From: Phycisphaerales bacterium
GTDB taxonomy: Bacteria; Planctomycetota; Phycisphaerae; Phycisphaerales; SM1A02
Length of the DNA stretch: 41,032 bases
Assembly: GCA_028823105.1 (NCBI GenBank)
Contig: JAPKCC010000017.1
Span: forward strand, 1 to 41,032
Direction of reading: 5' to 3'
Under the pieces are notes generated by a model that was given only the letters and a program-made list of their open reading frames with translations, was not told the origin of the DNA and searched no databases. The translations under genes were made by a program, and so were the position numbers. Of this stretch, positions 8,576-29,298 are shown piece after piece (within the stretch, counting starts at the first letter, position 1; each line of letters opens with the position of its first letter).

Positions 8576-8648
8576 TGATTCCGCTGGGGCTCGAACCCAG
8601 GACCTGGCGATTAAAAGTCGCATGCTCTACCAACTGAGCTACGGAATC
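8576..8648 (-). tRNA. tRNA-Lys (anticodon TTT)
   Basis: Reverse complement GATTCCG-TA-GCTC-AGTTGGTA-GAGC-A-TGCGA-CTTTTAA-TCGCC-AGGTC-CTGGG-TTCGAGC-CCCAG-CGGAATC-A folds as a cloverleaf; 73 nt, 3' CCA not encoded. Confidence 0.95.
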
Positions 8649-26989: not shown

Positions 26990-27598
26990 TCAGGCCGGCT
27001 TGAGAAGAAGCGTTGTGCCGAGGGCTGCGATTTCATCCACGAAATTGGTAGCGGGACCCGCCAGCTTGCCGAGATGGATGTCCCGGGGGGGACCAAGAAG
27101 CAACCCGCGGAAAGCTGAGAAGCTTGCATCGGTGAGATTGAGCAGGGATCCCGGTGGCGGCGTGATTTTCTTGAAGCATGCGACGAACAAGTCCGAGTTT
27201 GCGGTGAAGGCAGCATGGTCGATCGGCATCACCGGGGGAAACGTGAGCAGCACGAATGAGAAAGCATTCGGTCGTTCGTCGTAGAAGCGGTAGCTCGACT
27301 CCACCCATGATCGGATGAACGTGCCGAGATCCGTCTCATTGGTGGCCGACGCTCGCCGAGTCGCCGCCAATTCAAAGACGAGGCTTGAGAAGACCTCCTC
27401 CTGCATCGCATTCTTGTTCTCGAAGTGATGGTAGAGCACCGCCTCGTTGCAATCAGCTTCGCGTGCAATCGCTCGAACACTCGCGTTCTGAATTCCGTCG
27501 CTGCCCACGACCTTGATCATTGCGTCCATCAGTCGTTGCTTTGTGCGGGCACCAGTTCGCTTCGGTGATTTCGTGGGAGACGTCATTGTTGAGTTCAT
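26990..27598 (-). CDS. TetR-family transcriptional regulator
   Basis: TKQRLMDAMIKVVGSDGIQNASVRAIAREADCNEAVLYHHFENKNAMQEEVF is a TetR HTH. Confidence 0.9.
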   Translation of the reverse strand: MNSTMTSPTKSPKRTGARTKQRLMDAMIKVVGSDGIQNASVRAIAREADCNEAVLYHHFENKNAMQEEVFSSLVFELAATRRASATNETDLGTFIRSWVESSYRFYDERPNAFSFVLLTFPPVMPIDHAAFTANSDLFVACFKKITPPPGSLLNLTDASFSAFRGLLLGPPRDIHLGKLAGPATNFVDEIAALGTTLLLKPA

Positions 27599-27708
27599 TT
27601 TCTCGTGGTTGCGTGTTGTAGAGGTTCGGGCGGGAATTTGGCGGCTCAGAATCGGCATGTCTTGGGTCTGACGGTCGAGGAGTCACAACGTTGCGTCGAA
27701 TCTAAAGG

Positions 27709-27796
27709 TTGTCAGGAGGGGTGTTTTGGGGTCAATGTCACTGAGTCCAGAAAAAGACTTGTTTTATTTTGTCAGGAGCGGTGTCTTGGGGTCAAT
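27709..27796 (+). repeat. Imperfect direct repeat, two 28-nt copies with exact 60-bp period
   Basis: TTGTCAGGAGGGGTGTTTTGGGGTCAAT (27709-27736) and TTGTCAGGAGCGGTGTCTTGGGGTCAAT (27769-27796), 26/28 identical. Confidence 0.9.
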
Positions 27797-27897
27797 AAAA
27801 TGCAGAAGAACGGTCTTTTCCATATTGACAGGCAGCATTTAGGCGGAAATTGGCGGTTTTGGCTTTGAGTGTGTTCGGCTTTGGATATTATTGAATT

Positions 27898-27920
27898 GAG
27901 CGTTTATAGAACGAACGCTC
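27898..27920. promoter_or_regulatory. Dyad GAGCGTT-N9-AACGCTC, candidate operator
   Basis: 7-bp perfect arms around TATAGAACG in the tetR/oxidase divergent intergenic region. Confidence 0.4.
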
Positions 27921-27984
27921 TCAAATTTGACTCTTTCGTCCGGGGTTTTAGTCGGCGTTTCGACTCTTGCTAGAACCCCCTTTA

Positions 27985-28016
27985 GAACTCCCTCGGTTTT
28001 CCGAGGGAGTTCTCTT
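27985..28016 (+). terminator. Orphan intrinsic terminator
   Basis: GAACTCCCTCGG-TTTT-CCGAGGGAGTTC, 12-bp perfect stem followed by TCTTT; no called gene ends upstream of it. Confidence 0.75.
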
Positions 28017-28131
28017 TCATCTACGGGCGTTCTTGGGCAAGCGTTGGGGTTGGACTTGCATCTGGTCGAACGGCGGTCCTTCGTTGGTTCTTTAGAAATC
28101 GGCGGGGCAGCGTAACCCGCATAATGCTCGT

Positions 28132-29298
28132 ATGGAAAAGAGGCGGTTCGTAGTCGTGGGGCTGGGTGGTATCGGCGCGGCGGTACTGAATGAGTTGTCA
28201 ATTCGTAGGGTTCGCCCGTTAGGGCTAGACGGTTGCACGATTGGTCATGATCTCGGAAGTTCGCATGGGGGCTCGCGAGTCGCGAGGCAGGCGTACTTCG
28301 AACACGCAGATTATGTGCCACTGTTGAAATCGGCCTTCGACGGTTGGGACCGCCTCGAAGCGGAGACCGGAATCCGGTGTCTGCACAGGATCGGCGTGCT
28401 GCTGGCGGGCGGGATCGACTCGATGCTTCTGAAGGCATCGCTTGCGAGTGCCAGGGCCCACGGGATTTCGATCGAGTCTCTCGAACCCTCCGAACTTCGT
28501 CGTCGGTTTCCCCAGTTCACGCTTCCAGACGGAATGCACGGGGTGTTCGAGCCTGGGGCGGGCTTCGTTCGCCCGGAAGCCGGCATCGACGCAAATCTCC
28601 AGTCGGCGGTGCGGAGCGGCGCCGAAATTCGACGCCCGTCAAGAGTTCTTGGCATCGATGCCGATGACGACGGTGCCTTGATCAGGACGAGCCAGGGGGA
28701 GATTCGAGCCGAACGGGTGGTGGTGGCCGCGGGTGCCTGGACGAGCCAACTTCTCGGAGAAATCGACCCCCGCATCACGCTCGTTCCCCAGCGGAAGGAA
28801 ATGGTCTGGTTCGCCAACCGCGGAGAGAGGGCGTGTTCGTCTGCCGGAATGCCCGCCTGGCTGATCGACGACGACGGTGCCTGCGGAGATGGTGTCTATT
28901 ACGGCGTTCCGACCTGGAGAGGCCAAGAAGGCCCTCTGGGGATGAAAATCGGCTTTCACGGGCCTGGTATACCGGTTGATCCGAACGTGAAGCAGGCGGT
29001 CCCTCAGGAGATCGTCGATCGCTTTTCAAGAGACATGAAGCGGTACCTTCCCGACGTGCTCGGCGAACCGATTGCCGCCCAGTCCTGCCTCTACACGATG
29101 AGTCCGGACGAGCACTTCGTGATCGATCGGCTCCCCGGGCGGGCGGCCGTCGTCGTGGCGGCCGGATTCAGCGGTCATGGCTATAAGTTCGCCCCGGCAA
29201 TCGGCGAGATCGCGGCGGATCTCGCCATGAAGGGGGAATCCTCGCTTCCGGCAGGGTTCTTGGGGTTCGCCAGATTTGGAACCAAGGCTGAATCGTGA
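28132..29298 (+). CDS. FAD-dependent amine oxidase, monomeric sarcosine oxidase / N-methyltryptophan oxidase-like
   Basis: FVVVGLGGIGAAVLNELSIRR FAD motif; LGSSHGGSRVARQAYFE; SCLYTMSPDEHFVIDRLP includes the Cys expected for covalent FAD; GFSGHGYKFAPAIGEIAADL. Confidence 0.9.
   Translation: MEKRRFVVVGLGGIGAAVLNELSIRRVRPLGLDGCTIGHDLGSSHGGSRVARQAYFEHADYVPLLKSAFDGWDRLEAETGIRCLHRIGVLLAGGIDSMLLKASLASARAHGISIESLEPSELRRRFPQFTLPDGMHGVFEPGAGFVRPEAGIDANLQSAVRSGAEIRRPSRVLGIDADDDGALIRTSQGEIRAERVVVAAGAWTSQLLGEIDPRITLVPQRKEMVWFANRGERACSSAGMPAWLIDDDGACGDGVYYGVPTWRGQEGPLGMKIGFHGPGIPVDPNVKQAVPQEIVDRFSRDMKRYLPDVLGEPIAAQSCLYTMSPDEHFVIDRLPGRAAVVVAAGFSGHGYKFAPAIGEIAADLAMKGESSLPAGFLGFARFGTKAES

What the first reader, a model, noticed from the sequence alone, without database searches (positions are those of the whole stretch)
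27898..28016. Orphan terminator and tandem hairpins between divergent genes: candidate small RNA or attenuator
tetR runs left and the oxidase runs right, so no gene should end here, yet a strong terminator (27985-28016) is present. It is preceded by GGGGTT...AACCCC (27942-27979) enclosing AGTCG-GCGTTT-CGACT. This fits a ~100-nt structured RNA ending at the terminator, or a leader that attenuates the oxidase. The oxidase's own -10-like CATAAT at 28120 would leave the upstream RNA independent.
Basis: partly seen in the sequence, partly recalled or inferred. Interest (0 to 1): 0.6.

Follow-up and report, generated by a model that had tools for sequence, protein, structure and literature searches.

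The report
Conserved two-hairpin RNA before oxidase
A short stretch of DNA in front of an amino-acid oxidase gene in a group of marine Planctomycetes-type bacteria encodes a previously undescribed folded RNA that has kept its shape and a 17-letter signature across ten species, and it probably acts as a switch that decides whether the oxidase gene is transcribed.

Summary
Window 27929-28013 folds into two tandem hairpins, the second terminator-like (fold z = -6.3). The element occurs once per genome in 10 species of two genera of one Phycisphaerales family, always between a divergent TetR gene and the same oxidase gene wherever the contig reaches that far. It was found in no sampled genome of other families. 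A 17-nt block (GACUCUUUCGUCCGGGG) is invariant in all ten while the DNA upstream does not align. Hairpin I pairs in 130 of 130 cells, with compensatory changes in 6 of 13 pairs. Hairpin II has largely different stems that still pair. G-U pairs place the RNA on the + strand. In one relative (G068) hairpin II is missing, hairpin I runs straight into U5, and the oxidase ATG with an SD-like GGGAG lies 27 nt on, so there the element is very probably a 5' leader. I judge it an attenuator-type leader with a default terminator; an independent sRNA is the main rival. The signal is unknown: no conserved antiterminator, leader peptide, Rfam membership or trans target was found. It is a new RNA family of a known kind. 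The N-methyl amino acid ligand idea is untested.

The parts
27929..27945 (+). Invariant 17-nt block GACTCTTTCGTCCGGGG; 5' part can form GAC-UCUUUC-GUC mini-hairpin, last four G start hairpin I
   Evidence: Identical in 10 of 10 species while DNA upstream does not align
27942..27979 (+). Hairpin I: 11-bp stem, 4x4 internal loop, 2-bp stem closing a UUCG loop
   Evidence: 130/130 cells paired in 10 species, 6 of 13 pairs with changes on both sides, slid controls 42-60%; U-G pairs at columns 21/46 and 24/43 would be A-C on the other strand
27984..28013 (+). Hairpin II, terminator-like, 13 bp, UUUU loop, tail CTTTCATC
   Evidence: in 9 of 10 species a 10-14-bp stem at the same place, differing in sequence between clades, most with U-rich tails; absent in G068
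27864..27891 (+). Possible promoter TTTGAG-16-TATTAT of the RNA (TSS near 27898)
   Evidence: Same place and spacing in G003, G001 and G115 (TTTACA-16-TATTAT, TTTACA-16-TAAACT, TTGATT-16-TATCTT); not better than shuffles in the window itself. Weak
27898..27920 (.). Inverted repeat GAGCGTT-N9-AACGCTC just after the possible -10: TetR operator or 5' hairpin
   Evidence: Sequence reading; several relatives have an inverted repeat of different sequence there; function not tested
28132..29298 (+). FAD-dependent oxidase, DAO family, above cut-off for N-methyl-L-tryptophan oxidase; presumed controlled gene
   Evidence: PF01266 E 1.4e-49; NF008425 353 bits, cut-off 257
26990..27658 (-). Divergent TetR-family regulator (most homologues align from residue 25, so the true start is probably near 27598)
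   Evidence: PF00440; TetR next to the element in every species whose contig reaches that far

Best explanation
A cis-acting 5' leader of the oxidase gene that works by transcription attenuation. A promoter in the TetR-oxidase intergenic region makes an RNA that folds into a small conserved domain (invariant GACUCUUUCGUCC plus UUCG-loop hairpin I) followed by an intrinsic terminator (hairpin II; in G068 hairpin I itself). By default transcription stops there. Something that recognises the conserved domain, a metabolite, a protein or another RNA, changes the fraction of polymerases that read through into the oxidase, adding a second control to the divergent TetR regulator. Shown by comparison: the RNA structure, its strand, its conservation, its single copy, its fixed position before this gene, and a terminator-like second hairpin in 9 of 10 species. 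Inferred: that it is transcribed, that it terminates, that read-through is regulated, and by what.
For: Fold z -6.3. One strong match per genome in 10 species, each directly upstream of and on the same strand as the oxidase; secondary CM matches are weak (E 0.06-1) and look like chance. 100% pairing with 6 compensated pairs. Hairpin II keeps pairing through sequence change, most copies with U-rich tails. In G068 the oxidase ATG is 27 nt after the hairpin I stem with GGGAG between, leaving little room for another promoter. 21 other oxidase loci of the order's relatives lack both TetR and RNA.
Against: No alternative antiterminator fold is conserved: pairing of the 5' block with the terminator's 3' arm is strong only in four related species, and pairing between the two 5' arms is significant only in G004. 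The whole gene block is syntenic, so position alone does not prove cis action. In the window's species the terminator lies 118 nt before the ATG and its U-tract is poor. A promoter is not statistically clear in most species.
Confidence: 0.55

Rival explanations
1. An independent trans-acting sRNA of about 90-120 nt, ending at hairpin II; the pyrimidine-rich invariant block (UCUUUCGUCC) is its seed for mRNAs. The oxidase has its own downstream promoter (CATAAT 28120).
For: Tandem-hairpin layout with terminator is typical of sRNAs; Rfam's best hit is an sRNA (ncS54, 30.2 bits). CATAAT six nt before the ATG in both G000 and G006. No antiterminator is evident.
Against: The Rfam hit is below its gathering score (43) and agrees in layout, not in sequence. 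Exact 11-nt complements of the block elsewhere are few, mostly inside coding frames, and none exist in G001, G003 or G114. In G068 the element sits 27 nt before the oxidase ATG with no second terminator. Shorter seeds were not tested.
Confidence: 0.25
2. The element is bound by a dedicated or general RNA-binding protein as an autoregulatory or antitermination site, with no small-molecule sensing by RNA.
For: A UUCG-capped hairpin with an internal loop and an invariant flank resembles protein-binding RNA sites; no classical switching fold found.
Against: No candidate protein: the neighbour is a TetR DNA-binding protein; no other copies of the site exist in the genomes.
Confidence: 0.12
3. A plain tandem terminator or insulator with no regulatory role.
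For: Two stable hairpins in a row, the second terminator-like; in G068 hairpin I itself carries the U-tract.
Against: Does not explain 17 invariant letters at the 5' side, which pure terminators do not need, nor the conserved loop. No gene ends there.
Confidence: 0.08

Closest known systems
Intrinsic-terminator attenuators and riboswitches in bacterial 5' leaders
   Same: Conserved RNA domain followed by a terminator-like hairpin upstream of one metabolic gene, same strand, single copy
   Different: No antiterminator fold found; no known aptamer consensus; no leader peptide; known from only two genera
Rfam RF02871 ncS54 (Burkholderia sRNA 54)
   Same: Layout: interrupted hairpin, short linker, terminator; 30.2 bits, full-length match
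   Different: Below gathering score 43; almost no shared loop or 5' sequence; other phylum; relatives' loci give no ncS54 hit
Terminator-ended trans-acting sRNAs
   Same: Size, pyrimidine-rich 5' block, terminal terminator hairpin
   Different: Tied to one gene; G068 has no room for a separate unit; no conserved target found

Membership tests
Transcription-attenuating leader/riboswitch | Conserved secondary structure with compensatory changes | tested here: met
   130/130 cells paired, 6 pairs with changes on both sides, 0 of 500 shuffles reach the covariation score
Transcription-attenuating leader/riboswitch | Located in the 5' UTR of the controlled gene | tested here: inconclusive
   Very likely in G068 (27 nt to ATG, SD-like GGGAG); in the other species the gap to the ATG is longer (118 nt in the window) and the transcription start is unknown
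Transcription-attenuating leader/riboswitch | Terminator plus mutually exclusive antiterminator | tested here: not met
   Terminator-like hairpin II in 9 of 10; no conserved antiterminator
Transcription-attenuating leader/riboswitch | Direct ligand binding changes expression | not testable with these tools
   Needs in-line probing or in vitro transcription
Rfam families (4227 models) | Score at or above the family's gathering threshold | tested here: not met
   none over the element; best ncS54 30.2 of 43 bits
Leader-peptide attenuator | Conserved short ORF across the hairpins | tested here: not met
   No conserved start; G006 has TAA in frame directly before the block; frames stop at different places
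Trans-acting sRNA | Conserved antisense targets for the invariant block | tested here: not met
   11-nt exact complements not shared between species; shorter seeds not tested

The most novel reading that the evidence does not exclude
A new, very small riboswitch class whose aptamer is the invariant GACUCUUUCGUCC plus the UUCG-loop hairpin, sensing the oxidase's substrate or product (an N-methyl amino acid, sarcosine or glycine), working alongside a TetR regulator.
Probability: 0.13. Interest if true: 0.8.

Novelty: new member of a known kind. Interest (0 to 1): 0.5.

Why it matters
It is a well-supported, undescribed structured RNA in a lineage (Phycisphaerales) for which the literature search returned little on regulatory RNA. 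It sits at a locus where a TetR regulator and an RNA occur together and are missing together. If it binds a metabolite it would be a new riboswitch class for N-methyl amino acid metabolism; if it binds a protein or acts in trans it would still be a new regulatory RNA family. The sequence is short and cheap to test in vitro.

Tried and rejected
Leader peptide: no conserved start, in-frame stop in G006. Built-in antiterminator: 5' block with terminator 3' arm pairs far better than shuffles in G000, G006, G003, G001 only; hairpin I 5' arm with hairpin II 5' arm significant only in G004; not conserved. The terminator background set contained some of the element's own hairpins, so only the per-species shuffles are relied on. 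Known RNA families: none at threshold. Minus-strand RNA: G-U pairs argue against it. Wider distribution: CM searches of order, class and phylum samples gave only weak matches outside the two genera; the best (G429, 29.8 bits) lacks the signature. Eight pattern hits in other phyla score 13-19 bits with the model and are about what chance gives for that pattern by my own estimate. Viral contigs: none. Plasmids: none. Trans targets: none conserved. G007 cannot be judged: its contig ends 160 bp before the oxidase.

Full report
What is there. The window is one contig of a 194-contig genome (G000, 3.35 Mb). At 26990-29298 a TetR gene runs left and a DAO-family oxidase runs right. Between them lies 27929-28013: an invariant block, hairpin I and hairpin II. 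The + strand folds 6.3 standard deviations better than shuffles.

Relatives. A DNA search showed the same stretch at 83-87% identity in G003, G001 and G006, where the downstream oxidase is 56-57% identical in protein in G003 and G001 and 81% in G006. A covariance model of 57 positions built from eight species then searched 181 genomes of the family, 400 of the order, 397 of the class and 392 of the phylum. It found 10 species at 65-83 bits, seven of the window's genus (g1) and three of a second genus of the same family (g55); the next match anywhere is 29.8 bits and lacks the signature. Each of the ten genomes has one strong copy. The eighth member of the window's genus, G007, has a contig that ends 160 bp before the oxidase.

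Structure. In the ten-species alignment the first 17 columns are identical in all, while upstream DNA does not align. The conserved fold is an 11-bp stem, a 4x4 internal loop and a 2-bp stem with a UUCG loop (the loop differs in G005, G001 and G115). All 130 cells pair, six pairs change on both sides (for example column 22/45 A-U:5, G-C:5; column 30/37 U-A:6, C-G:3, A-U:1), no shuffle of 500 reaches the pairing, compensatory or covariation measures, and slid partners pair in 42-60% of cells. Several rows are close relatives, so this counts sequences rather than independent events, but changes fall in both genera. The frequent U-G pairs (columns 21/46 and 24/43) would be A-C on the other strand, so the RNA is the + strand. 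Hairpin II is present in nine species with stems that differ between clades and still pair (AGAACUCCCUCGG, AAGCCUCUCGGUUC, GCCGGCUCCGCC, CGACCGACCCCGCC and others), most followed by a U-rich tail; the window's own tail is one of the poorest.

Context. The order PSD / HXXSHH / TetR (divergent) / element / oxidase / I42 is kept in both genera as far as contigs reach. In G004 and G005 three TetR genes stand in a row. Of 21 other oxidase loci examined from genera without the RNA, none has a recognisable TetR neighbour of this type. So TetR and RNA occur together and are absent together, which points to joint control of the oxidase locus.

Cis or trans. G068 is the most telling: hairpin II is missing, hairpin I is followed by UUUUUCGUUUUG, and the oxidase ATG begins 27 nt after the stem with GGGAG before it. 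A transcript for the oxidase there very probably passes through the element. In the other species the gap from hairpin II to the ATG is longer (118 nt in the window). A promoter upstream of the element is plausible (TTTACA-16-TATTAT in G003, TTTACA-16-TAAACT in G001, TTGATT-16-TATCTT in G115, TTCGCA-17-TATATT in G002), but in the window itself and several others it is no better than shuffled DNA. An exact 11-nt complement of the invariant block is absent elsewhere in G001, G003 and G114, and the few copies in other genomes lie mostly inside coding frames, which does not support a conserved trans target of that length.

Mechanism. The best reading is an attenuator leader: default termination at hairpin II, with the conserved domain as receiver of a signal. 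I could not find the switching partner. The 5' block can pair over 10 bp with the 3' arm of the terminator in G000, G006, G003 and G001 (-12.5 to -15.6 kcal/mol, at most 1 of 500 shuffles as strong), but not convincingly in the others, and the local terminator is stronger (about -25). Pairing of the two 5' arms is significant only in G004. So the switch, if any, may depend on a bound ligand or protein rather than on a simple strand exchange. This is the main reason the confidence is 0.55.

Relation to known families. No Rfam family reaches its threshold over the element. The best, ncS54 of Burkholderia (30.2 of 43 bits), shares the layout of an interrupted hairpin plus terminator but not the sequence; that RNA is listed at 128 nt among candidate sRNAs of B. 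cenocepacia biofilms (PMC5688073). Literature searches found no described RNA leader of a sarcosine/N-methyl amino acid oxidase and no such RNA from Phycisphaerae among the papers listed, within an open-access library only.

Noticed in passing
27710-27736 and 27770-27796: Two 27-bp direct repeats TGTCAGGAGNGGTGTNTTGGGGTCAAT exactly 60 bp apart in the TetR-oxidase intergenic region; found nowhere else in the genome with up to 3 mismatches. TGTCAGGAG recurs upstream in G006. Candidate operator pair.
   Followed up: partly
27841-27868: GGCGG-N5-GGCGG followed by CTTT, conserved in G000, G006, G003 and nearly so in G001 and G115 just upstream of the possible promoter; possible activator or TetR site.
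   Followed up: partly
L037 and L039, around the oxidase start: Perfect inverted repeat CATTCGC-N9-GCGAATG overlapping the oxidase start codon in G003 and G001.
   Followed up: no
L111 and L112: Three TetR-family genes in tandem upstream of the element in G004 and G005, where other species have one.
   Followed up: no
28120-28137: CATAAT six nt before the oxidase ATG in G000 and G006, which would give a leaderless mRNA; not seen in other species.
   Followed up: partly
8576-8648: A tRNA gene on the - strand is the only Rfam match above threshold in the window.
   Followed up: no
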